This document shows, piece by piece, positions 5,965-53,200 of a DNA stretch of 64,000 nucleotides. The stretch's first letter is position 1. Each line of letters opens with the position of its first letter. Source of the stretch: Watersipora subatra (lineage: Eukaryota; Bryozoa; Gymnolaemata; Cheilostomatida; Watersiporidae); the NCBI RefSeq assembly GCF_963576615.1, contig NC_088711.1:1178001-1242000 (forward strand), written 5' to 3'. The position numbers were made by a program, and so were the translations under genes. The notes under the pieces are model-generated. The model was not told where the DNA came from and made no database searches. It saw only the letters and a list, made by a program, of their open reading frames with translations.

Positions 5965-6185
5965 TGTCTATCTTTGCACAGACACAAGGTCCATGGATGA
6001 CTCACCAGACTGTGGGTAGGCACTGGGTTGAGGAGGGTAACTACCCACACCTGAATCAAAACCAACACCACCGGTCATGGAAGCGCCAGGCACAGCTCCG
6101 TAGCCCGTTTGAGGTGGGACAGAAAAACCACCAGGCTGGGGGGCTGCAGCTGGAGGGCCACCGAAGCCCAAGTCACCAGCAGCAT
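5965..6185 (-). CDS. Possible alternative last (or internal) exon of the Pro/Gly-rich gene
   Basis: Read on the minus strand, the acceptor TTTCTAG precedes an exon that opens in phase 1, exactly compatible with joining exon 4 (6835-6900) and skipping exon 5. It encodes about 60 residues of the same composition (FGGPPAAAPQPGG, SYPPQPSAYPQSG). A good donor, GTGAGT, follows at 6005-6000 (phase 1), so the exon could splice onward. If read through, it ends in frame at a TAG at 5965-5967. The nearest polyadenylation signals lie before it, at 6237 and 6290, so it would be used only in longer transcripts. No downstream partner exon was found towards position 1. Confidence 0.6.
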
Positions 6186-6537: not shown

Positions 6538-9500
6538 TTAGTATCGTGGGGGCTGTTGGGGATAACCGCCAGGGGCAGGGTAGCTCCCAGCCGGGGCACC
6601 GGGCATCCCTGGAGCAACAGTTCTTGGGGCCGCTCCAGCGGGTGCAGGATATGTAACAGGAGGTGGAGGAGCGTATTGTGAACTACCTACAAATCAAACC
6701 ACTCAGGCAATGGCTTAGAGCAAGAAACCAGCCTCCATGTGTTTTAAAAGACCAGATGGAATGAAACAGGCCTAGATCTAATTCCTATACCGTAAATAAA
6801 TGGTTTTGTAAATAACAATGGTAACACGACTCACCAGGTGTTGGGAAACCTTGGCCTCCAGGAGGGTACTGGCCAGGCGCTGAGAATGGTGGAGCACCAC
6901 CTGTAACCAATAGGATAAGGAGAAATTCTAAGCTATGTTATAACCCTCTAGACATTTGAGCTACTCCAAGGTTTCACTAGAACAATATTAAGTCACCTAG
7001 ACTACTCCGTATACTCAGCAACCATCAACTAATAGAGTGTGAAACTATCTAATTTACATGTGAACTAGGTACCACTCAACTCTTTACAAATGAAAAGACA
7101 ACTCCATAAAAGAAAGTTTGTGCTATTCAATTTTGTTACAGTGCAAATCCTATTAGTAAAAATCATTAAATTATATTAATGCGTTAAAAATTAAGCTATT
7201 GAGAAATATTGGGAGTAGCAAATGACCACAAAGATTATTAATGGCGTAGTAAGATACATGCTCCACATCTGCAATTGTTCATAACACTGATAAAGCGAGT
7301 CTAGACAGGAAAATCAATTTATTGTGAAGAAAACCCTAGATGACAATAGCAAATGACTTTTCCAAGATTCCACCATGATTTAATTGATACTTAAAAATAA
7401 TATGTGCACAATGCTGTCAAAAATGGAAGTCTTTCTTCCAGAATCAACAAAATTTAATGCACAGCGTATACAAGCTACCTTTGAGTGCGAATGATGAATC
7501 GCTATTTGTCAATTGTGATAAATTTATTCTTTCCATAACAAACTATCAAGTTGAAAAATGAAAAAAATCTCAAAAACCCGCTCAATTTATTATTTGCAAC
7601 TGTCACTTTTGGATTAGTTTCTACCTACTTGTAGAAGTCGATTTATTAAACCGCTCAAGTTCAAAGCCTTTTCAGCAGCATTCATACATAGCAATATTGC
7701 ACTAAAATGCATTAATATATAGCAATATTGCACTAAAATGCATTCATATAGAGCAATATTGCACTAAAATACATTCATATAGAGCAATATTGCACTAAAA
7801 TGCATCTATATAGCGCAATATTGCACTAAAATGCATTCATATAGAGCAATATTGCACTAAAATGCATTCATATAGAGCAATATTGCACTAAAATGCATGC
7901 AGCGCAGATCTGTTCTTTTAATGGAGTGCACTGACCACTAGCAAAGCAGGCCATCATCTTTACCCCCTGATTATTCGTTTGGCATTTGATAAGAGAGCAG
8001 ACCAAAGTAAGGGGTTAACAGCCAAGACAATCACTAGTGTTACATGCTACAAATTTTTGAGCTTCGAAGTTGTGGTTTTGATCGTAGGAATGAGGACATA
8101 TTTACATGATACATAGCTGATGAGTTTACATGCTACGAAAAAATTATCATTTTCTATAGCCTGTTGCACTTTTAGCTACAGCGGGGCGCATATTTTATAT
8201 CGCGGCTGACACTATTAAAATGCGTCTAGGATCAAATGTCAATCGGCTCCTTTCAATTTACAATAACTATTTACGGCATCTGCCAGTTGGTTGTACACAG
8301 CCGTACTCTTTTCTCTTCAACCATCAATCTTTAACAAAATGTTTAATGCAACCGCTAGGTAGACTATTGTGATAACTCAACCGAGAACAGAGCATTCGTC
8401 ATTCTAGAAAAAAACTCCGAATTTGAAAAAAAATTTCCTACACATTTTGACATTTAAAATATTGTATTTTAAAAGTTACAATTTATGTGTTTTGACATCC
8501 TAAAATAAATGTGTTTTAAAATATTTTTACAACACATGCGTTGAAAACAGAGCTGCGTAGGGATGCTATAAGGACGTCACCAATAAATACAACGAAAATC
8601 TAACCTCTGTTCGCAAAGATTTGTGCAACAATTTAATACATATAATATATATTATATATATATTATACATATATTACATGATTATATTATATATAATATA
8701 TATTATATATAATATAATAATGTAATATATGTATAATATAATATATATAATATATATATTATATATATAATACATATTATATATATATTATACATATATT
8801 ACATTATTATATTATATATAATACATATTATATATAATAATGTTTATATCATGCACACTACTTCGTCGTTGATGGGATGTTTTCAAAAGTACCCCCCTTG
8901 AGTCAGATTCGAATTGCTTCGAATATGCGACGTTTGAAACCATTTACATGCTACAAAGATGAAAAATACAACAAAAATTCGTAGCGTGTAACACTAGTGA
9001 ATGTTAGAATTAAGTAAAGTAAAAGGTCTCACTGAATGTCCTTGCACGAAGGTAAAAAGATGGGAAAACCTCAAAAGCCTATAATCTCTGGCAGCAGCGG
9101 CAGAGAACTGCTGGTATGACAACGGTAGACAGAGGATACTAGTGAATGTGCATTGCATGCAAATAAATCTCTGCTTTGATATCACAACAAACATGGCTGA
9201 TGTCTATGATTCTCACCAGTTGGAGGATATCCTGGTTGAGAGCCAGGATATCCTCCAGTAGGAGGATAGCCCATTCCACCTGTCGGAGGATAGCCACTCT
9301 GAGGATAGCTTCCTGGCTGCTGGCCAGGATAGGCACCTGGAGCAGGTGGGTAGGCACCATATGGAGCAGGTCCCGTCCCTACTGCAAACTGGCCGGGCTA
9401 CAAGAGATGAAGGGCTAAAAATGTATAAAAACTAGTCGAGAGAGAGGTGTCGAGAGAGCAGACGGCCGACCGTGTTGTTTGTTGATGGGAAGCAACAAAC

Positions 9501-16928: not shown

Positions 16929-17005
16929 GTTAATCATATCAGAAACCATATCAGAAGCTCTGTTCAATAACTTTTCTTGATTTTAAGAGAGAGAAAGCTC
17001 CAGAG

Positions 17006-17517
17006 ATGGCCATAGTAAACAAAGTGGAGCACATCGGTGTACCTCCCCAGCTACGTAGCACCTTAATAGGCTTGAACAGCGTCTTGACAGACTTGGGCTT
17101 TCCTAGGTGGATATTGGTCAAATGGCAGGTGCCTCCTCTGCTGACATTTTGGCTGCTGCTTACTCTATTGCTTTCTGGCCTCCGATGGTTCGCCCTTTCA
17201 CAAATAGCATTTACCCTTTACAAGCTATATGAAGAGTATGGGGAGCCTGTCTCTGATTGGGTGAATGGAGCTAATGGTGAGTATGGCTTGTGGTAATTGA
17301 AGGAAAAAGTTCGATGTCTATATTTTACTATTTCTTACTCTCCAGACAGTCTTAACAGATGTTAATGGTCAATTGTTGCACAGGTTATAGAATCCAGAGG
17401 CATCGATCTGCTTCACAGAACGGCTCTACGAGGAGCAGCTCAAAGCAGAGAACCGAGTCTACTCCTAAGACAACATCTCCGACATACGAAGACGAGGAGG
17501 GTGAATACTCAAGCTGA
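17006..17517 (+). CDS. Small membrane protein, two exons, 134 aa, unrecognised family
   Basis: Exons are 17006-17276 and 17384-17517. The donor is AATG|GTGAGT and the acceptor TTGTTGCACAG, joined in phase 1; the stop is TGA at 17515. The ATG sits in GAGATGG, an acceptable start context. Residues 1-43 are a soluble head (VEHIGVPPQLRS). Residues 44-68 are strongly hydrophobic (LLTFWLLLTLLLSGL) and form one membrane span or hairpin. FTLYKLYEEYGEPVSDW follows, and then a Ser/Thr/Arg tail turning acidic at the end (YEDEEGEYSS). The tail contains RHRS, a possible basophilic kinase site. The intron is only 107 bp. I do not recognise the family; an ER or organelle membrane role is only a guess. Confidence 0.72.
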
Positions 17518-24154: not shown

Positions 24155-27100
24155 CTAAAGCAAAGAGTCGCTACTTACTGATGTTTGAGGCTTGATAACC
24201 CGCATGTATTGTCCAGCCCTCTTCGCTTCCTTCCTCTCCGCATCCGTCACTGGCTTTGAGTCAAGGAACTTGAGACCAGGAATTTTGTATATTACGTATT
24301 TTCTACAGAAGCAGAAAACCCGTAGTAGTGGTTGGTATAATAAATTAACCACGTAAGAAACTAGATGTTTAAAGACCTCAGGCCTAGACAGAGTCAAGAA
24401 GAAACATTTTATCACGTGCACGAGGGCGCATGCGTTTGCCTCACTATATATTTTGCTATGCTGCACTGCTATATGAATAAAGGGGGTAGATCCTAACCGG
24501 TCGATCAGTAAATGACCTACCATAGAGCCTCTATTTAAATAAGGCCATCGTACTCTATTTTTAACCTTTCCCTATAGTGGCGTTCAAATGAAGGCTGTAT
24601 TTTTGGAGTTGCTGTCTAGAAGTTTTGAAAGATAAATTTAACCCTTTAACGGATGAAGCGATGCTAATGTCACTTGTATTTTACACTCTCCTTCGGCCGA
24701 ATCAACATTAATACCATCGGCCCCATCGACCCCATCGACCTCACCAAACTGTTTTTCATATACGTCGAAGTATCAGACCGAGTTAAACAAGGAACTACAT
24801 GTACTTTGATTATAAAATACCGGTATTATCAGGATTAGCAGGATTAGCAGGATTAGCAGGATACAGTTACTTATTATTTGGACTGTGTCGCTTTCAATGT
24901 TTCAAAGAACAAACCGTAAATCTTTGGAGTTAGAAAACGAACATAACATTTTAATTTTTTAAAGAAGTTTTTAACATTTTAAAGTTACAATCGCCATAAC
25001 AATGGCCGTCATACAGTGTTCCTGAAGACACGGGTACTCCGAGCGTTGCGATAGGCGAAGGTGAGAAGAAAGAGAGAAGGGTATATTACAAAAAAACACA
25101 CCATCTCATTTACCTTTAGAAATGCTCTCAATTAAAAATATACATCAAATAACCTAAAAATCTAAAATTTTACCAATTAAAACACTCACCTTTTCTAATA
25201 ATATACAACTTTCAAAAGACACTTTTCTACGGATCACTTTCTATTATGGGTTGGTAAAAATCCAAGAATGTCAAAGTGGTGGTCAAACAGAGGTGGCGTT
25301 CAATTAAAGGATGTCGCCGCATTTTTCAACCCTTCTCCTATAGAGGTGGCGTTTAAATAAAGGTGGCTTTCAAATAAGGTATTACAGTATAATGATAACA
25401 AAAGTACACTGTGCAGGCAGTTTCAAGCAAAGAAAGTACAATAGATAGTACATTATATTTGTGTTCTGGATATTCAACGACTGTTAATTTGATTCCTAAA
25501 TAAAAATCATGCGTCAATTAAAAATAATTCAAACCAATGTTGATCAATAATTTTTAAATATGATAAAATATCCGGATAAATAAAAAGGTATTTGGTTTGT
25601 TCAAAAACCTCATGATGACGCTGAAATCATAAATGAAGATGGAAAGAGATTTATTATACAGAGATTTGGCAGTCATCCATCCGGGGGCGAGTTGAACAGA
25701 AAGGCGTGACTATACTGGAGCACGTGCATAGTTAGCAGCAAGAGCATAGCTCCTAGTAAATGACCCTTACATTACGTGTATGTACAGCAGTTTGATATAA
25801 ATACCATGGCCTTGTCAACCAAGGACAACATATATTTGACAGCCTGGGAAAAATCCATATGGCTTATGTAGTGCATAGCTAATGGGCCAGAATAGTCAAG
25901 CTACTCAATTCAAATGGGATCTTCCAAGTTTTAACCACTTTTGAATACCCCATGTGAACTCCTCCCTTGACAGGGTACCGCCTATATCCTTTCTTGACGG
26001 GTACCCATAAAATTGTGGACTGGAGAAATGACTCAAGCCTTGACAGCTATTGTGGAGTTCTCCTCTAGATATTGAAGCAGTAATTTTTAGTATTCAATGG
26101 TGTTTAATGATCATGCCTGATCTGCTTGTCAAGCAGTCAGTTATTAAAGCCTACAAACATTTAACTCCCTAACAGACCCCCTCCCAGACCCCCTCACAGA
26201 CCCCCTCCCAGACCCCCTCACAGACCCCCTCACAGACTCCCTCCCAGACCCCCTCACAGACCCCCTCACAGACCCCCTCACAGACTCCCTCACAGACTCC
26301 CTCCCAGACCCCCTCACAGACCCCCTCACAGACTCCCTCACAGACTCCCTCACAGACCCCCTCACAGACTCCCTCACAGACTCCCTCACAGACCCCCTCA
26401 CAGACCCCCTCACAGACTCCCTCACAGACCTCCTCACAGACCCCCTCACAGACCCCCTCACAGACCCCCTCACAGACCCCCTCACAGACCCCCTCACAGA
26501 CCCCCTCACAGACCCCCTCACAGACTCCCTCACAGACCCCCTCACAGACCTCCAGAACACACCTTAACTCACAAAATGAACTTAAATACTTCTGTAAACC
26601 TGACATCATATACACAGCAACAAGTTTTTAGTTAGTTAAATCAAATAGTCTACACTGTCACCATGTTTGTGAAATCTATCAATCGATCATGTTTGTGCCT
26701 TATCAATCAGACGCACCACTTGTTAACTTATTAAATAAAATAATTTGTGTGACATAAATTATATCACACACATCAATTGAAATAAGTAATAATAATGATA
26801 AATTATTATTGATTATTATAAACACGTAATATATGTATATAATCATATTATAAATGCATAATATAATAAATTATAGTATAATTTATTATATTGTAATAAA
26901 TTTTCATTATTGCAGTAAGTAAAAGTAAACTCGGGCTAAAAGCCCGCTGTAGACACCTGCTGTAGACACCTGCTGTAGACACCCGCTGTAGACAACCGCT
27001 GTAGACAACCGCTGTAGACAACCGGTGTAGACAGCCGCTGTAGACAGCCGCTGTCACACCTTGATTATTCAAACACAGGTTTTTGACTTGTATAACTATC

Positions 27101-36100: not shown

Positions 36101-39100
36101 GAGTAGAGAAGGAGGAATGAGAGTACAGGAAGAGGAATGAGAGTAGAGAAGGAGGAATGAGAGTAGAGAGGGAAGAATGAGAGTAGAGAAGGAGGAATGA
36201 GAGTAGAGAAGGAGGAACGAGAGTACAGAAAGAGGAATGAGAGTAGAGAAGGAGGAATGAGAGTAGAGAAGGAGGAATGAGAGTAGAGAAGGAGGAATGA
36301 GAGTAGAGAAGGAGGAATGAGAGTAGAGAAGGAGGAATGAGAGTAGAGAAGGAGGAATGAGAGTAGAGAAGGAGGAATGAGAGTAGAGGAGGAGGAATGA
36401 GAGTAGAGGAGGAATGAGAGTAGAGAGGGAGGAATGAGAGTAGAGAAGGAGGAATGAGAGTAGAGAAGGAGGAATGAGAGTACCATAGGAGGAATTGAAA
36501 AACAGATGAGTAGAAAGGTCATAAACTGGGAGCATCTGTGTTTCTAAAAGAGGGCAGGCAGTGAGTTTGACGAAAGCCAAGTATGCAACCTTCAGGCCCT
36601 ATATTGGCCAGGTTCAGCAGCTACAGGGATCAGCAGTTGCAGAAGTACCTCACATTTTGCTCTTAGTTAATTAAAAGAGCTTATTTTAACGGCTGAATAG
36701 CATTCATAGCCTTCAGAGCATGCCCTTAGTATAATGTTGGTTGTTACCTTGTAATTCGCATTAATCATAGCCTAATTGTCAAGCCAAGAGCAATCTAATG
36801 CCAGCTCTTCAAAGCAAGGCTGATCCTAGGACAAAGACTAAATAAAACTTTGATAGCTGTTTTATCACAGGATGCATACTATACTGCAACAACTTAAACC
36901 GGAAATATAGTTTTTATGCACTCCTACAATGACCTCTAAATTTTAAAATTGAATTTTAGATAGGAAAGCAGTGCTAACGCATTGTCTCTCTTATCACAGC
37001 CCTGGATATGAAGTTGTAAAAATAATGGTAGTTTGAAAGGAGGAAAGGTTGTTACAGAGATACAGAGTATGTCAAGGATATAAGGTTGGTACAGAAATAC
37101 AGAGTATGTCAAGGATAAAAGATTGTTACAGAGATAAAGAGTATGTCAAAGTTGTTGTAAAGGATACAAGGTTGTTGCAAAGAGAGAGCAGCTGTAGCTG
37201 AGGAAGCTCTTCAAATTCTGTGGTTTCTGTGATTTCATTGTTATCAAGGATGAGAGCCTCCAGGCTGTCTGAGAAGTGCTCGAGGCCTTCTAGGTCTCTG
37301 AAACAGATGCGCGTGTGAGTTCATTTCCTCCGCAGTTCACCACGGAAGTGAATATTTATTAGCAGTAATGAGCTTGTCATACATTATATAAAAACAGCTA
37401 TTGATATTGGCTAAATTGTACGATGCAATGGAATTTCGCTGCTTGGATGAACTGATTAAATTTAGGTTAGACCACAAGTAGGTAATAGAGTGATAATTCA
37501 CCAGTACTTCCATTGAGTTGTTAATTGAAAGATTTTCTTGCTTGAATGTACAAAGGTGCAGTATTTAAAGCGCAACATGTGCTACAGCAGCGGAAGGAAT
37601 GAATTCCGATACGGCTAGAGACATAAAAAGCTTGCCAGTGATAGGTTAGACTAGCTGGTGAACGACAGACATGCTCATACAAATCATGCACGAGAGGTGT
37701 TTGCTATGCGATAACAAAGTATCGTTACAAAGATAACTAACTAGAGTTATTGAAGTTTAGTTTAGACTAGTCATTAGTGAACTAAACTAGCAGCGTAGAA
37801 CAACAGAGTCATACATAGACTAACTTAATAGAGTTATACAAGAGAACTATACATAGACTAACCTAATAGAGTTATAAAAGAGAATTATACATAGACTAAC
37901 CTAATAGAGTCATACAAGAGAACTATACATAGACAAACCTAATAGAGTCATACAAGAGAACTACTATACACAGACTAACCTAATAGAGTTATATGAGAGA
38001 TCAAGGGTTTTGACTTGCTGAGCATAGGAATATAACTCTTCGGGAATCAGATAGCAGTCTCTTCCAGCGTAGATCAACTGCAACATACATTTCGTTAAGA
38101 GATAATTATGTTTTAACAAACTTGAGTCTTGTTTAATGTGATAGCATTAATTGATGCTGGTTTATAAAAGTTAATGCAGTTATATTATAGGTAAGTCTCT
38201 ATCAATAAGCTTAGGAAAGAAACAACATGCCTTTAAACATACACATCCTCTCAGTTTGAAAGCTAAGCCTATACACAGTTATAAATGGTTTTTTCCCTAT
38301 ATGTATTTTGTCATAATGAAAAGACGAGTCAAGTTAGGTTTTACCGACGTAACATCAATCATGGCTAACATGAAACTTGAGCTCTGAGCTACTCCAACCC
38401 ATATTATGATATAACCCCAATTATTGACTGTAATATACTGGAAGAGCGAAACAACTTGTTAAATAGACAGACATTAAGATGGTAAGGCGTTAAAGCAAAA
38501 GGAAGACAATATAATCTTAATACACTGCATATAAGTATGTTTGTCTGGGCGAGCAGGCAGTCACGACTCGCTGTCACGACTCGCTGTCACGACTCGCTGT
38601 CACGACTCGCTGTCACGACTCGCTGTCACGACTCGCTGTCACGACTCGCTGTCACGACTCGCTGTCACGACTCGCTGTCACGACTCGCTTTGAGAAGCAC
38701 CATATCTTTATGTGTTGATGATTTGATGTTTATAAAATCCTTGAAAGATGGATGCCAGCAAATTAAAAGACTTTCTTTTTCGAAAAAAAGCTTACTCACT
38801 GATGAGCACTCCATGGTATTCTTCTAACTCCATGGTATTCTTCTAAGGTATCAGCTATTTAGAATTAAAAGAATTTTTTTTAAATGTCGTGTATTAATTA
38901 TGAAAAACATTAATAAAACAATATAAACTATCGTAAGTAATGAAATAAGTGAATCTATAGAATATTCCCAATTTAATGATAAAGAAATCTATGTGATGCA
39001 AGTCTCAATCATAAATAAAAATATTTTGACCAAAAATAAAGCTCTGTTCATCACACAGCTTATTTCTTGAAATCGCTACAAGACGCTCAACAAAGTTATT

Positions 39101-44249: not shown

Positions 44250-47200
44250 CTAAACAATATCTTCACCGTCAAAGACTTTTTCAGTAATGAGAAGTCCTCG
44301 GTTACGACAAGGGAACAACCATTTAATAACATTTTTGGTCCCGCAGAGAATGTCATACCGGTGCTTCATAGGACGTTCAGGTCTGGACAGCATCAGCCTG
44401 CAATAGAGCGGCAAACACTGATGTGACTACAGGGCACACTATGAATCGCATCAACTAGCATACCTCTGGTCGCGTGACTAACTGGAAGATTCTCACATGA
44501 CACAGGCTATGCTCCAAAAGAGCATAGCTCTGCATAACACAGAGCTATGCTTTCTATTAACTTGAGGCGTCAGTCAATATGTCACGATTTGTTTATATCA
44601 ATACAACACAACATCGTTATTTTACTCTTTCTCTCGACTGGTGAGAATGTGTGAAGCCGTCAACAAAACTACCTTACAAATTAAAGAGCAGGCGTATGCA
44701 TTCCTTGTCCTTTGTTACATCAAAGGCTAGTCACAAACAAGCCAGATGGTTGGCTCGCTCTACGAGCTATTCAGACAAGCTTTCTATTCACATGGTACGG
44801 TTAGTGACTCACCAAAATCTGGCTCATCCCTGAGAGGGTCATGTAACAATCGTATAACATAATGCTACCTGCCTTAGATGTCAGGTGCTCAACGGGTGAC
44901 AAACATGAAGTGTTTTATAGAACCATGAGCAACAGAGGGCTAAATGTGTAATGTAGGCGTAACCAACAGAGGGCCAGATGTCTAATGTAAGTGCGACTAA
45001 CACAGCACTAGGTTTGTAATGTAAGAGGGATTAGCAGAGGGCTAGGTGTGTAATATAGGTGTGACCAACAGAGGGCTAGGTGTATACTGCAGGTGAGACT
45101 AACAGAGGACTAGGTGTCTAATGTAAGTGTGACTAACAAAGGGCTAGGTGTGTAATATAGGCGTGACCAACAAAGGGTTAGGTGTGTAATGTAGGTGAGA
45201 CTAACAGAGAACTAGGTGTCTAATGTAAGTGTGACTAACAAAGGGCTAGGTGTGTAATATAGGTGTGACCAACAGAAAGCTAGATGTATACTGTAGACGT
45301 GGCCAACAGAGGACTAGATGTATACTGTAGGCATGGCCAACAGAAGACTAGGTGTCTAATGTAAGTGTGACTAACAGAAGGCTAGGTGTGTAATATAGGC
45401 ATGATGGGCAGAGGACACCAAATCTTGACTTATCATGACTAACAGGACTAGAAGCCTATAGCAGAAATGACGAGCAGAAGACGAGGGAGTCTAATTTATT
45501 TATATTATGACAGAAGGTGAGGAATCTGTAGACAAGTCGAAACAAAGGTCAAATGTCATCTTCTAGCGCCCTTTTCAAAATCTTGCCCGGTAGTAACCAG
45601 CAAAAGACTAATAGTTCGGTTCTTTACCATTTGCCATCCGCATTACAGCATATTGACAGCCAGCATGTTCTTTAACTGAGGAATTTTCATTGGCATAAAT
45701 AGGCAGTTTTATCACTCAATCACACTATAATTATAGATGCAATGAGATGCCAGCTCTTTGACCTGTCAGATCCTGTTACTAAACCAAGCATCTCATAAAC
45801 GTCAGACTCATGTTTAACATGGGCACCTGCTTTATGCTAAATTTAGGAGTAAAGTAAATACGAAGGGATGGAAGAACAATAACAGATAGAAGTAAATAGT
45901 TAAAGAAGGGATTGGAGTCATGCGAGCGCTAGCGATAGAGAGCTTACAGTACCAGCGATAGAGAGCTTACAGTACAAGCGATAGAGAGCTTACAGTACCA
46001 GTGATAGAGAGCTTACAGTACAAGCGATAGAGAGCTTACAGTACCAGCGATAGAGAGCTTACAGTCCAAGTGATAAAGAGCTTACAGTACAAGCGATAGA
46101 GAGCTTACAGTACAAGCGATAGAAAGCTTACAGTACAAGCGATAGAGAGCTTACAGTACAAGCGATAGAAAGCTTACAGTACCAGCGATAGAGAGCTTAC
46201 AGTACCAGCGATAGAGAGCTTACAGTACAAGCGATAGAGAGCTTACAGTACAAGCGATAGAGAGCTTACAGTACAAGCGATAGAGAGCTTACAGTACAAG
46301 CGATAAAGAGCTTACAGTACAAGCGATAGAGAGCTTACAGTACAAGCGATAGAGAGCTTACAGTACAAGCGATAGAGAGCTTACAGTACAAGCGATAAAG
46401 AGCTTACAGTACAAGCGATAGAGAGCTTACAGTACAAGCGATAGAGAGCTTACAGTACCAGCGATAGAGAGCTTACAGTACAAGCGATAGAGAGCTTACA
46501 GTACAAGCGATAGAGAGCTTACAGTACAAGCGATAGAGAGCTTACAGTGCAAGCGATAGAGAGCTTACAGTACAAGCGATAGAGAGCTTACAGCACAAGC
46601 GATAAAGAGCTTACAGTACCAGCGATAGAGAGCTTACAGTACAAGCGATAGAGAGCTTACAGTACAAGCGATAGAGAGCTTACAGTACAAGCGATAGAGA
46701 GCTTACAGTACAAGCGATAGAGAGCTTACAGTACAAGCGATAGAGAGCTTACAGTACCAGCGATAGAGAGCTTACAGTACAAGCGATAGAGAGCTTACAG
46801 TACAAGCGATAGAGAGCTTACAGTACCAGCGATAGAGAGCTTACAGTACAAGCGATAGAGAGCTTACAGTACCAGCGATAGAGAGCTTACAGTACCAGCG
46901 ATAGAGAGCTTACAGTCCAAGCGATAAAGAGCTTACAGTACAAGTGATAGAGAGCTTACAGTACAAGCGATAGAGAGCTTACAGTACAAGCGATAGAGAG
47001 CTTACAGTACAAGCGATAGAAAGCTTACAGGACCAGCGATAGAGAGCTTACAGTACAAGCGATAAAGAGCTTACAGTACAAGCGATAAAGAGCTTACAGT
47101 ACAAGCGATAGAGAGCTTACAGTACAAGCGATAGAGAGCTTACAGTACCAGCGATAGAGAGCTTACAGTACAAGCGATAGAGAGCTTACAGTACCAGCGA

Positions 47201-50200
47201 TAGAGAGCTTACAGTACCAGCGATAGAGAGCTTACAGTCCAAGCGATAAAGAGCTTACAGTACAAGCGATAGAGAGCTTACAGTACAAGTGATAGAGAGC
47301 TTACAGTACAAGCGATAGAGAGCTTACAGTACAAGCGATAGAAAGCTTACAGTACCAGCGATAGAGAGCTTACAGTCCAAGCGATAAAGAGCTTACAGTA
47401 CCAGCGATAGAGAGCTTACAGTACAACAGATAATCGAGATCTGAAGTTACAATGCAAACTGGTTTTACAAATTCAAGAGGTGTTGTACAGGCCTGACCAA
47501 CAGAGGGCTAAATGTATACTGTAGGCGTGACCAACAGAGGGCGATATACCATGATTATCAAAGCTTGAGGGCAAACAAGAATGGTAAACGCTGCTGAGTG
47601 TGCCATTCGAAAAGAACCTTTTTTGTTTGCTGTCAGAGGGTATGAGCCATATGGCTTGCAAGTGATTTGATTCGTGTAAATAAGAGTAGTACGTATTTGC
47701 TGTTGAGATTTGATGGCATTAGGGTGGATTTATATACTCGCTGAGACTTACGTAACGAGGTCTTTAGATATCATTGTTTCCAAAGTTGTCACATCCTGTA
47801 ACATAATATCCAGCTTTAGGTAACAGTCTCATGGCGTTGTGCAATACACAAACATATATGAACCTGTGCAATACACAAACATATATGAACCTGTGCAACA
47901 AGCAAACATATATGAACCTGTGCAATACACAAACATATATGAACCTGTAGACACACGCAAACATACGCCCAACAAATGTAAACTGGTGCGCTGCCTTCAA
48001 CGCAGATAAGAAAAAAATTGGATAATCAGGTGAAAGTTCCAAGTGCATATGGGGCAGGACTTACTAAGGCAATTCCAAAGTGCTGGCCACAAGAGAGGCC
48101 AACCATAGATATAGACATGATGGCAGACATTATATACGCTGCTATGAGTAGTGGTCTTTCGTGTATCACAAACCAGCTTTCCTGTAAAAAAACACCAGAT
48201 GTTAAAGCACATAAATTACATACTTTTTTTATTGTATATTGCAATACATCAGAGTCTTGGCTTTCGAATGAGCTATTGTTTGCCATGGTGAGACAGACAT
48301 TGGTTAGTGTTTATAGGATTTCCCCAGAGCTCTACTACAGAAATTTTTACTGGCTTAAGCTCGGAAATTGTGACGTCACAATTTTCATATGCGGTGTTAT
48401 GTGCTCTTACCGCCTATTTTATTGCTTACCGCTTATATTTATCAACTACGATAATGACGCTAGTGTCAGGCGAAGATAGGACAACTCCAGAGAACCAATG
48501 AAGATGACAAAGGAATCAGTGTCATTAGTTCTCCATGTACAGATTATTTCTATGATAAATAACTCAGATTCCAAGCACCATACTATGTTTTCCCGATGAT
48601 ATTATGCACTAGCCCTCTCAGTTTATTGTGAGGTTGAGGGTCGCGACTGAGACTAATTAGTTTCAAGCATTGCGTGATCTCGCGAAAGTGCGATTGACAT
48701 ATAGTCCAAGGGCCACGCAACCGCAGGTCACAATTTAATCGATGTGATTTCATTACCTTCATCAACGACAGTACATTTATTGAAGCATAATTAATTAACC
48801 CAGAACATGTGTTTGTATTGGTCGGGCGTTAGCACAATCCCGGGAATTGTTGATTATCTAGAATCCTAGTTTATTATTAGCGCTCTCTGGGTTTAACAGC
48901 ACCGATGGTCACAGAAAAGCGCAGCGAAAGGGATCGACGATCTAAGGCTAAATAATAATTGTGACATCACATTTTGAGAACTTGAACCAAGTGTTTTTTT
49001 TGCAGAACATACTTTTGACACGCTGTTTTTCATAGTTCTATTATTCTTTGTGTATTGAATATAGGCTCATTTGAAAGCCAAGACTCTGATGTATTGAAAT
49101 ATATAATAAAAAAATTATGTAATTTATGTGCTTTAACAAGTACAAAAAAGTGTGGGGGTGGTTGATATGAACTACATGAGACATGGGCGGAGTTACTTTA
49201 TACAGTCTGAGACAAGGGCGGAGTTACTTTATGCAGCGTGAGACAAGGGCGCAGTTACTTTATACAGCGTGAGACAAGGGCGGAGTTACTTTATACAGTC
49301 TGAGACAAGGGCGGAGTTATTTTTATACAGTGTGAGACAAGGGCGAAGTTACTTTATACAGCGTGAGAAATGGGCGGAGTTACTTTATACAGCGTGAGAC
49401 AAGGGCGGAGTTAATTTATACAGCGTGAGACAAGGGCGGAGTTATTTTTATACAGTGTGAGACAAGGGCGAAGTTACTTTATACAGCGTGAAACAAGGGC
49501 GAAGTTACTTTATACAGCGTGAGACAAGGTCGGAGTTACTTTATACAGTGTGAAACAAGGGCGGAGTTACTTTATACAGCGTGAGACAAGGGCGGAGTTA
49601 ATTTATACAGCGTGAGACAAGGGCGGAGTTACTTTATACAGTGTGAAACAAGAGCGGAGTTACTTTATACAGCGTGAGACAAGGGCGGAGTTACTTTATA
49701 CAGCGTGAAACAAGGTCGGGAGTTACTTTATACAGCGTGAGAAATGGGCGGAGTTACTTTATACAGCGTGAGACAAGGGCGGAGTTAATTTATACAGCGT
49801 GAGACAAGGGCGGAGTTATTTTTATACAGTGTGAGACAAGGGCGAAGTTACTTTATACAGCGTGAAACAAGGGCGAAGTTACTTTATACAGCGTGAGAAA
49901 TGGGCGGAGTTACTTTATACAGCGTGAGACAAGGGCGGAGTTAATTTATACAGCGTGAGACAAGGGCGGAGTTATTTTTATACAGTGTGAGACAAGGGCG
50001 AAGTTACTTTATACAGCGTGAAACAAGGGCGAAGTTACTTTATACAGCGTGAGACAAGGTCGGAGTTACTTTATACAGCGTGAGACAAGGGCGGAGTTAC
50101 TTTATACAGTGTGAAACAAGGGCGGAGTTACTTTATACAGCGTGAGACAAGGGCGGAGTTAATTTATACAGCGTGAGACAAGGGCGGAGTTACTTTATAC

Positions 50201-53200
50201 AGTGTGAAACAAGGGCGGAGTTACTTTATACAGCGTGAGACAAGGGCGGAGTTAATTTATACAGCGTGAGACAAGGGCGGAGTTACTTTATACAGCGTGA
50301 AACAAGGTCGGGAGTTACTTTATACAGCGTGAGAAATGGGCGGAGTTACTTTATACAGCGTGAGACAAGGGCGGAGTTACTTTATACAGCGTGAGAAATG
50401 GGCGGAGTTATTTTTATACAGTGTGAGACAAGGGCGAAGTTACTTTATACAGCGTGAAACAAGGGCGAAGTTACTTTATACAGCGTGAGACAAGGGCGGA
50501 GTTACTTTATACAGCGTGAGACAAGGGCGAAGTTACTTTATACAGCGTGAGAAATGGGCGGAGTTACTTTATACAGCGTGAGACAAGGGCGAAGTTACTT
50601 TATACAGCGTGAGACAAGGGCGGAGTTAATTTATACAGCGTGAGACAAGAGCGGAGTTACTTTATACAGCGTGAGACAAGGGCGGAGTTATTTTTATACA
50701 GTGTGAGACAAGGGCGAAGTTACTTTATACAGCGTGAAACAAGGGCGAAGTTACTTTATACAGCGTGAGACAAGGGCGGAGTTACTTTATACAGCGTGAG
50801 ACAAGGGCGGAGTTAATTTATACAGCGTGAGACAAGGGCGGAGTTATTTTTATACAGTGTGAGACAAGGTCGGAGTTACTTTATACAGCGTGAGACAAGG
50901 GCCAAGTTACTTTATACAGCGTGAGACAAGAGCGGAGTTACTTTATACAGCGCGAGACAAGAGCGGAGTTACTTTATACAGTGTGAGACAAGGTCGGAGT
51001 TACTTTATACAGCGTGAGACAAGGGCGGAGTTACTTTATACAGCGTGAGACAAGGGCGGAGTTACTTTATACAGCGTGAGACAAGGGCGGAGTTACTTTA
51101 TACAGCGTGAGACAAGGGCGGAGTTACTTTATACAGTGTGAGACAAGGGCGGAGTTACTTTATACAGCGTGAGACAAGAGCGGAGTTACTTTATACAGCG
51201 CGAGACAAGAGCGGAGTTACTTTATACAGCGTGAGACAAGGGCGGAGTTACTTTATACAGCGTGAGACAAGGGCGGAGTTACTTTATACAGCGTGAGACA
51301 AGGGCGGAGTTACTTTATACAGCGTGAGACAAGGGCGGAGTTACTTTATACAGTGTGAGACAAGGTCGGAGTTACTTTATACAGCGTGAGACAAGGGCGG
51401 AGTTACTTTATACAGTGTGAGACAAGGTCGGAGTTACTTTATACAGCGTGAGACAAGGGCGGAGTTACTTTATACAGTGTGAGACAAGGGCGAAGTTACT
51501 TTATACAGCGTGAGACAAGGGCGCAGTTACTTTATACAGCGTGAGACAAGGGCGAAGTTACTTTATACAGTGTGAGACAAGGTCGGAGTTACTTTATACA
51601 GCGTGAGACAAGAGAAACAATAACTTATTAACGCTCATCAATACGATAAATAATTTAGTTACCGTCTATGATCACAAATTAGATGCAAAGTAACAATGGC
51701 ATGTACACGTAAGTAGCAGCACAGAGTCACTAGATCAGAAATTGCAATTTATTTGTTATTTGTTATTTGCTGACATCCAAACTACTCGTTGTAATATAAC
51801 ATACCTAGTGGCTGCTCAGCCTTTATCCCACTCATCTCTCACTTATCATCTGTTAAGAATTCACCACACACTGATACTAAAAATGGCTAGGTAACTAGTT
51901 CAATAAAAGGAAACTAGGTACTTACAGGGCTACAGAACTCCGATGGACACGGCGGTAGTTTGTAAGACTTGGAAAGGCAAAAAGCAAATGCAAATATGCT
52001 CAGACCAATAGAGTAGAATATGAGTTGTATAAATGCAAAGTGGTTGTCTTCTCCTACACAGTTGTTTATCCTACAATTGAAACAAAATATTTGGTGAGGC
52101 AAAACTGGGTTGCGATGAACACGGTTACAAAATGAAACGGTATGGACGTTAGCGGCACAGACGGTTACCATAGTTATGTAGATAACAATGCAGAGTTTAG
52201 CTGTTTGTAGTGAGAGTGTAACGGTGCCTGATGTAACAGGAAATAGCCTACGGTAGTCATCATTGTAGGAAACACTGAATCAGCATGCCAACCATAGTTC
52301 ACGGATGTTAGACTGAGAGTGAATTTCAATTACAAGGAGGTCTCTCTTGGCTGTAATAGCTGTTCTAGAAACATGCCTACCACGGACAGTGATGATCCAT
52401 TCGAGTGACACAATGTCTGCACCTCTTACAATGGTGGGATCTTGGCGGCCGCTTCTGGTTGCATTTGGAGCAATACTCCCAGTCAGCCTGCGCTGCAAGT
52501 AGCATTCCTTGTTCATAGTAAAACTATTCCTAGTGCTACTCTAGACAACATATCTACAGCCCGATCACTCGAGTAAGTTTGACTCAAGGATAAATTACAG
52601 TGAGTGCAAAAAAAGGGGAGGGAAAAAGCTAGAATACACAAGAGGGATCCATGCATGTACAGAGCAGGAGTCCTACATTGTTGCAGCCAATAGATGAATG
52701 CTAAAATATCTTGCTCAAAAATAATATCATACAGCTACAAACAGAAGTGCTCGAACTGTTCTGGAATTAGATTCACCCATAAAAGTTACCCATATTATAT
52801 TCTATAAATTGTTCATAACAATTTCGGAATATTACATTCTAGTAAGTCTAATCCTCAACTTGGACGGAGGCCACATTTAACTGGAAAATGGAAAACTGTT
52901 TGTACAGCGAGTGTCACTCCACTCAAGGCAAAGATGGCTACAGATAGCAAATATGGCGACAGATAAGCACCAGATACAGTTTTGATAAACAGTCAGCAAT
53001 AAACGAGTTAAAAATGAAATAACTTCTGTAAATATAAAAGCATAAAAGTGATGAGAAGCGATAAGGATTTAAAAGTTATGAGGAAAATGCAGTCATATAT
53101 AAATGGGTATAGTTGCGACAGTTATTAAATCTATTTAACTTGACTGATTCCTGCCAGTAGTTTTAATTTTTTTAAATAATACAATTATAATAACAACCAA

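What the first reader, a model, noticed from the sequence alone, without database searches (positions are those of the whole stretch)
37815..37995. Exon 2 donor of the LRMDA-like gene is tandemly copied into its intron
The exon 2 end plus its 5' splice site, AACTCTATTAG|GTTAGTC on the gene strand, is the last member of a 38-bp array. Four more copies lie directly downstream in the intron. Three keep a usable GTTAGT and one has GTTTGT. The gene therefore presents a ladder of decoy donors, each of which would extend exon 2 by multiples of about 38 bp. A minisatellite that begins at, and carries, a functional splice site is not a standard feature.
Basis: seen in the sequence. Interest (0 to 1): 0.8.

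Follow-up and report, generated by a model that had tools for sequence, protein, structure and literature searches.

The report
Splice donor copied into intronic minisatellite
In an animal gene, a short tandem repeat in an intron was built from copies of the end of the exon before it, splice site included; this is a real but rare case of something already described in amphioxus under the name "mirages", and it most likely does little harm or good.

Summary
A 38-bp, 4.9-copy array (37811-38000) includes about the last 21 nt of exon 2 of an LRMDA-like gene (minus strand) and its donor TAG|GTTAGT at 37979. Four intronic copies follow: three with GTTAGT, one with GTTTGT. The exon homology exceeds chance (junction score 59; highest of 2000 non-array positions 39). 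Exons 2-5 join in phase into an open 171-aa LRR protein; each of the four decoys brings an in-frame stop at codon 38 of that partial frame. So the exon-proximal donor is very probably the coding one. It is not without precedent: tandem repeats spanning exon/intron boundaries are known in amphioxus as "mirages" and reported not to disturb splicing (PMC3087553, PMC3902484; passages), and repeats at such boundaries are reported in human genes (PMC2812944; passages). Added here: the next exon's donor also seeded an array (37037-37149) whose three copies lack GT, and a chaperonin gene elsewhere has a duplicated acceptor whose copy lacks AG. Sampled frequency: 0 of 80 donors, 1 of 68 acceptors; control positions scored 1 of 62 and 1 of 62. 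Best explanation: a mostly neutral tandem duplication across a splice junction. No transcripts were available; donor use is untested.

The parts
37980..38077 (-). Exon 2 of the LRMDA-like gene (98 nt; LIYAGRDCYLIPEELYSYAQQVKTLDLSYNSIR, ends two bases into a codon)
   Evidence: Open frame with TTGCAG acceptor and TAG|GTTAGT donor; joins in phase to exon 3
37811..38000 (-). 38-bp array, 4.9 copies, including about the last 21 nt of exon 2 and its donor
   Evidence: TRF; alignment and null tests
37974..37979 (-). Inferred true donor GTTAGT (after TAG)
   Evidence: Only one of the five donors that keeps the frame open
37933..37938 (-). Decoy donor 1, GTTTGT (+41)
37895..37900 (-). Decoy donor 2, GTTAGT (+79); same 9-mer as the true donor
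37857..37862 (-). Decoy donor 3, GTTAGT (+117); same 9-mer as the true donor
37819..37824 (-). Decoy donor 4, GTTAGT after TAA (+155), weak
37168..37297 (-). Exon 3 (DLEGLEHFSDSLEALILDNNEITETTEFEELPQLQLLSLCNNL), inferred donor CTT|GTATCC (weak by consensus)
37037..37187 (-). Second array of the same kind: 37-bp, 3.1-copy array (TRF 37037-37149) homologous to roughly the last 16-20 nt of exon 3 and the start of intron 3, with a 12-nt insert next to the exon; GT is absent in its three intronic copies
   Evidence: TRF; junction match score 31, reached by 0.6% of 2000 non-array positions; 3 of 5000 and 4 of 3000 shuffles reach the observed scores
32256..32395 (-). Exon 4, donor TAG|GTAAGT, no tandem copy found (score 15)
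24155..24302 (-). Exon 5 (KYVIYKIPGLKFLDSKPVTDAERKEAKRAGQYMRVIKPQTSVSSDSLL, stop)

Best explanation
A 'mirage'-type minisatellite. A segment spanning the exon 2 / intron 2 boundary (about 21 nt of exon plus about 17 nt of intron) was duplicated in tandem and then expanded to about five copies by slippage or unequal exchange. The copies lie in the intron and are removed with it. U1 may bind several copies, but the coding mRNA uses the exon-proximal donor; occasional use of a decoy would add an in-frame stop, and such transcripts would be expected to be removed by nonsense-mediated decay. Shown: the array, the exon homology, two decoys equal to the real donor, the stops, a second boundary-spanning array in the gene and a boundary duplication in another gene. 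Inferred: direction exon to intron, expansion mechanism, actual donor choice, decay, near-neutrality.
For: Array and coding homology. Of the five donors only the exon-proximal one gives the open 171-aa LRR frame, Pfam LRR_9 7.1e-16. The exon-edge copy is the outlier on its exonic side (5 of 24 letters different from each of the other four copies; the others differ from each other there by 0-3; two or three of the five lie at the outer end, perhaps beyond the homology), as expected of an array edge held by coding constraint and left out of homogenisation, which PMC3087553 describes for its own cluster boundaries. Exon 3's donor shows the same in an independent array, and CCT-eta-like L052 shows a two-copy acceptor duplicate. 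Amphioxus mirages are reported to splice normally (PMC3087553, PMC3902484; passages).
Against: No transcript was seen. Two decoys match the real donor over the whole 9-mer and in computed U1 pairing, so the letters of the site do not say why the first one would win. PMC2812944 (passages) says that variable tandem repeats at exon-intron boundaries of human genes may form new introns, often with alternative transcripts, so silence cannot be taken for granted. A preference of arrays for splice junctions is not shown: random placement of the window's 34 arrays touches two or more of 7 donors with P 0.012, but two or more junctions of either kind with P 0.056; 0 of 80 donors sampled elsewhere show it; and the single acceptor case (1 of 68) is matched by 1 of 62 exon-internal and 1 of 62 intron control positions.
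Confidence: 0.76

Rival explanations
1. Regulated poison-exon ladder: decoy donors are used in some tissues, giving stop-containing transcripts that lower LRMDA output, with copy number setting the dose.
For: Four GT donors, two identical to the real one over 9 letters; each of the four gives a stop after exon 2. Extended exon 2 lengths of 139-253 nt stay within ordinary exon sizes (recalled). Repeats at exon-intron boundaries in human genes are reported with alternative transcripts (PMC2812944, passages).
Against: Nothing shows use. Stops in an intron just past a donor are ordinary. The sister array at exon 3 and the L052 acceptor copy lack their splice dinucleotides, so keeping decoys is not a general feature.
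Confidence: 0.09
2. Redundant U1 landing sites: extra copies of a weak donor (7 of 9 consensus letters) raise U1 occupancy and help definition of exon 2 or protect the intron from early polyadenylation.
For: The real donor is weak at +3 (T); the four best U1-pairing GT sites between the exon 2 start and exon 3 are the real donor and three decoys (-6.6, -6.6, -6.6, -5.9; next sites -5.4). In one single-strand fold the real donor is the least paired of the five (mean unpaired 0.53 against 0.25-0.42).
Against: The fold is one unvalidated prediction; the margin over other GT sites is small (-5.9 against -5.4); no conservation or functional data.
Confidence: 0.07
3. Chance overlap: in a window that is 21% tandem arrays, an array simply arose where it did, next to an exon, without the splice site playing any role.
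For: Arrays are dense; random placement touches one or more of 7 donors in 17% of trials; 0 of 80 donors elsewhere show a spanning copy, and control positions score as often as acceptors.
Against: It leaves the observation standing: the exon's coding letters are in the units. It differs from the best explanation only in denying a junction preference, which these data do not establish either way. Two of the gene's three donors are affected.
Confidence: 0.38
4. Intron gain in progress (Rogers-type AG|GT tandem duplication, as proposed for mirages): a unit later becomes an exon.
For: Four of the five copies carry TTAG|GT, a proto-splice site (the fifth TTAA|GT).
Against: Read-through meets in-frame stops; exons 2 and 3 join normally without any unit.
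Confidence: 0.03

Closest known systems
Amphioxus 'mirages' (Adh3, Canestro et al. 2002, seen only as a citation; globins BflGb6/BflGb9, PMC3087553; PGBD5 and troponin C, PMC3902484; passages)
   Same: Minisatellite-like tandem copies that span an exon/intron boundary and often keep splice signals; cluster boundaries left out of homogenisation; donor and acceptor sides both affected.
   Different: No expression data here.
Variable internal tandem repeats of human genes in segmental duplications (PMC2812944, passages)
   Same: Minisatellite-sized repeats, some at exon-intron boundaries, proposed to create introns through cryptic splice sites.
   Different: Those repeats are studied within exons of recent paralogues; here the copies lie in the intron of what looks like an ordinary gene.
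Intron gain by tandem duplication of AGGT segments (Rogers 1989, citation only; PMC4974935, PMC3443670 seen as search listings)
   Same: Tandem duplication of a segment containing AG|GT.
   Different: No new intron has formed; the copies sit in an existing intron.
Ordinary intronic minisatellites
   Same: Unit size, copy number, divergence.
   Different: Ordinary ones need not contain coding sequence or a splice junction; this one does.

Membership tests
Mirage (tandem repeat spanning an exon/intron boundary) | Head-to-tail copies of minisatellite size | tested here: met
   TRF 38 bp x 4.9
Mirage (tandem repeat spanning an exon/intron boundary) | Units contain exon as well as intron sequence, across the splice junction | tested here: met
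   Junction match spans -20 to +17; exonic side alone scores above all of 2000 shuffles
Mirage (tandem repeat spanning an exon/intron boundary) | Splice signals kept in many but not all copies | tested here: met
   GT kept in 4 of 4 intronic copies at exon 2, 0 of 3 at exon 3
Mirage (tandem repeat spanning an exon/intron boundary) | Regular splicing not disturbed | not testable with these tools
   No transcripts held; frame argument only
Mirage (tandem repeat spanning an exon/intron boundary) | Length polymorphism between alleles or somatic cells | not testable with these tools
   One assembly only; one full-length match in it
Mirage (tandem repeat spanning an exon/intron boundary) | Host is a cephalochordate (all cases that I saw named so) | tested here: inconclusive
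   Genome unnamed; no COX1 match in the assembly; 784 Mb in 239 contigs
LRMDA gene family | Short LRR protein with an LRR_9-type match | tested here: met
   LRR_9 58.7 bits over cut-off 30.5; exon 1 not found
LRMDA gene family | Orthology to vertebrate LRMDA | not tested

The most novel reading that the evidence does not exclude
The array is a tunable splice-donor ladder: copy number varies between individuals and sets how much LRMDA pre-mRNA is diverted to stop-containing transcripts, in an animal outside the cephalochordates, while sister arrays in the same gene and genome have had their splice letters removed by selection.
Probability: 0.05. Interest if true: 0.7.

Novelty: new member of a known kind. 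Interest (0 to 1): 0.32.

Why it matters
Identical tandem donors next to a real one are a natural experiment on how the spliceosome chooses among equal sites, and boundary-spanning repeats are a proposed route to intron gain. This case adds a gene with two such arrays in consecutive introns, one with intact decoy letters and one without, a further case at an acceptor in another gene, and a rough frequency in this genome (0 of 80 sampled donors, 1 of 68 sampled acceptors).

Tried and rejected
Taxon: no tRNA, no Rfam family at gathering threshold, no COX1; left undetermined. A relative of the array elsewhere: the two C11 hits are an unrelated array of a TAAGTCTATGTA-type unit (first of the two loci read). 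Exon 2 acceptor as a third case in the gene: it resembles the far end of the array (37791-37816), but P 0.024 for one of 15 junctions is not convincing. Degenerate units beyond 37800: best score 28 against a shuffle maximum of 29 of 500; not claimed. CCT donor in L051, score 26 spanning -11 to +18 at 150 nt: an isolated imperfect match, no array there by TRF; counted as a miss. Proteasome donor in L028, score 26: an array that starts about 6 nt inside the intron and does not contain the junction; counted as a miss. First passes over the proteasome loci ignored that these loci are not oriented to the match; discarded and redone. Annexin-like donor 9216 scored 26, but against the exon's own coding repeats. 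The LRR protein as query in genome contigs gave one distant bacterial protein. Positional enrichment of arrays at junctions: suggestive only.

Sampling details: in the window 7 donors and 8 acceptors were counted; left out were a possible exon 5 donor (24178, score 19) and the uncertain FAM241-like acceptor and donor (scores 16 and 21). Of 72 Cpn60_TCP1 rows 52 were used; dropped were 12 intronless-looking C3 copies (L035, L036, L038-L044, L046, L047, L050), four further C3:27.9M/29.0M rows, and four single rows (C1:28044320, C4:22577715, C4:22575657, C7:2954741). The 27 proteasome rows were used. Of these 79 exons 62 gave a donor and 68 an acceptor by the scoring rule. Of 150 Ras rows 20 were fetched and 18 gave a donor. 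Donors were called by a recalled, human-like weight table, so some may be wrong by a few bases. In one search the exon-internal and intron controls each had 1 of 62 positions at score 27 or more; those two were not looked into.

Passages of PMC12783039 (earthworm metallothionein) describe minisatellites inside intron 1; I saw no boundary-spanning units there. The L052 duplication is offset by 60 bp, not 65.

Full report
What is there. I rebuilt four exons from open frames, splice letters and phase: exon 2 38077-37980, exon 3 37297-37168, exon 4 32395-32256, exon 5 from 24302. Joined, they read without a stop for 171 codons, and the protein matches Pfam LRR_9 at 7.1e-16, 58.7 bits against a cut-off of 30.5. 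Exon 1 was not found.

The array. TRF gives 37811-38000, period 38, 4.9 copies. The exon-proximal copy lies across the end of exon 2. On the gene strand the five junction-like places are TAG|GTTAGT (37979), TAG|GTTTGT (37938), TAG|GTTAGT (37900), TAG|GTTAGT (37862) and TAA|GTTAGT (37824). The 40 nt around the real junction match a copy downstream with score 59, over -20 to +17; of 2000 random non-array positions the highest score was 39. With arrays included, 16% of 3000 random positions reach 59, since such positions lie inside arrays. The last 24 exonic nt alone score 32 against the intronic copies; the best of 2000 shuffles scored 26.

Which donor. Of the five, only 37979 keeps the reading frame. 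The four decoys lengthen exon 2 by 41, 79, 117 and 155 nt and each brings the same in-frame stop after 37 codons of the partial frame. Computed pairing with the recalled U1 5' end is -6.6 kcal/mol for 37979, 37900 and 37862, -5.9 for 37938 and -2.4 for 37824; the next best GT sites between the exon 2 start and exon 3 have -5.4. Use of any of them is untested.

A second array in the same gene. The 37-bp array at 37037-37149 lies 18 nt beyond the exon 3 donor. The exon 3 end TCTTTGCAACAACCTT|GTATCCTT aligns with a unit at 20 of 24 letters, and after a 12-nt insert the match goes on. The junction score of 31 is reached by 0.6% of 2000 non-array positions and by 19.8% of 3000 positions with arrays included; shuffled exon edges reach the observed scores in 3 of 5000 and 4 of 3000 trials. 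This is good but weaker evidence than for exon 2. The three intronic copies lack the GT (sequence printed).

How common. In the window, 2 of 7 donors and 0 of 8 acceptors have an array end within 25 nt; random placement of the 34 merged arrays gives two or more such donors with P 0.012, two or more such junctions of either kind with P 0.056. Searches of the own genome (784 Mb) gave 27 proteasome exons, and 52 of 72 chaperonin rows were used: 0 of 62 called donors and 1 of 68 called acceptors had a junction-spanning copy with score 27 or more; 1 of 62 exon-internal and 1 of 62 intron control positions also scored 27 or more. Twenty Ras-family exon ends (of 150 rows) added 0 of 18 donors. The one acceptor is in a chaperonin gene (L052, protein EYQAIVDTEWDIL..., CCT-eta-like by recall): the acceptor and about 38 nt of exon are repeated 60 bp upstream in the intron, and the copy reads TTGCGG where the real site reads TTGCAG. 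So such duplications occur elsewhere in this genome and are rare; an excess at junctions over other positions is not shown.

What is known. [quoted passage not shown] PMC3902484 (one passage) adds PGBD5 and troponin C. PMC2812944 (passages) reports minisatellite-sized variable repeats in human genes, some at exon-intron boundaries, with proposed new introns and alternative transcripts. The 2002 Adh paper is not held. The word 'mirage' in this sense appeared, among what I saw, only for amphioxus (searches); that is weak evidence, since most subscription papers are missing and most listed papers were not opened.

Reading. The simplest account is a boundary-spanning tandem duplication in a genome where 21% of this window is tandem array, tolerated because the copies are intronic and the frame punishes decoy use. 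The exon-edge copy differs from each of the others at 5 of 24 exonic-side positions while the others differ from each other there by 0-3, as expected of an edge under coding constraint. That decoy letters persist in one array and are gone in the two other cases is an interesting contrast, but three cases cannot show selection.

Noticed in passing
L052 1436-1545 (G000:C4 about 30060206-30060315): CCT-eta-like gene (name by recall) with a duplication, offset 60 bp, of its intron/exon acceptor boundary; the intronic copy reads GG in place of the acceptor AG.
   Followed up: partly
window 51926-52070 and 52381-52492, minus: Two in-phase exons of a DHHC palmitoyltransferase (..HHCPW|INNCVGEDNHFAF..), ZDHHC21-like by recall; Pfam DHHC E 0.00075 on the first-named, 20 bits, below the curated cut-off of 28.7.
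   Followed up: partly
window 9217-9397 and 6006-6185, minus: Proline/glycine-rich exons like the N-terminus of annexin A7/A11 (recalled resemblance; no Pfam hit).
   Followed up: partly
window 16934-17296, plus: Open frame whose residues 47-88 match Pfam DUF4605 (E 0.00015, 21.9 bits, below the curated cut-off of 27), FAM241-like by recall.
   Followed up: no
whole window: TRF arrays of period 9 or more cover 21% of the 64 kb, e.g. 78 copies of 31 bp at 49177-51612 and 65 copies of 23 bp at 45931-47426.
   Followed up: no
L028 (G000:C9 about 50493600): A proteasome-subunit intron has a tandem repeat that starts a few bases past the donor without containing it.
   Followed up: no
G000:C3 about 22.6-30.7 Mb: Twelve chaperonin-like (Cpn60_TCP1) copies matching as single long frames of 391-519 aa (8 of 12 with no stop inside the match, 4 with one), seemingly intronless and spread along one chromosome region.
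   Followed up: no
G000:C1 47.53-47.73 Mb and C11 0.40-0.54 Mb: Clusters of Ras-family exon matches: 13 rows on C1 (7 with stops inside the match) and 12 on C11 (2 with stops); stops may come from matches running into introns.
   Followed up: no
window 37791-37816: Far end of the exon 2 array resembles the exon 2 acceptor boundary (81% of 26 letters); P 0.024 before allowing for 15 junctions.
   Followed up: partly
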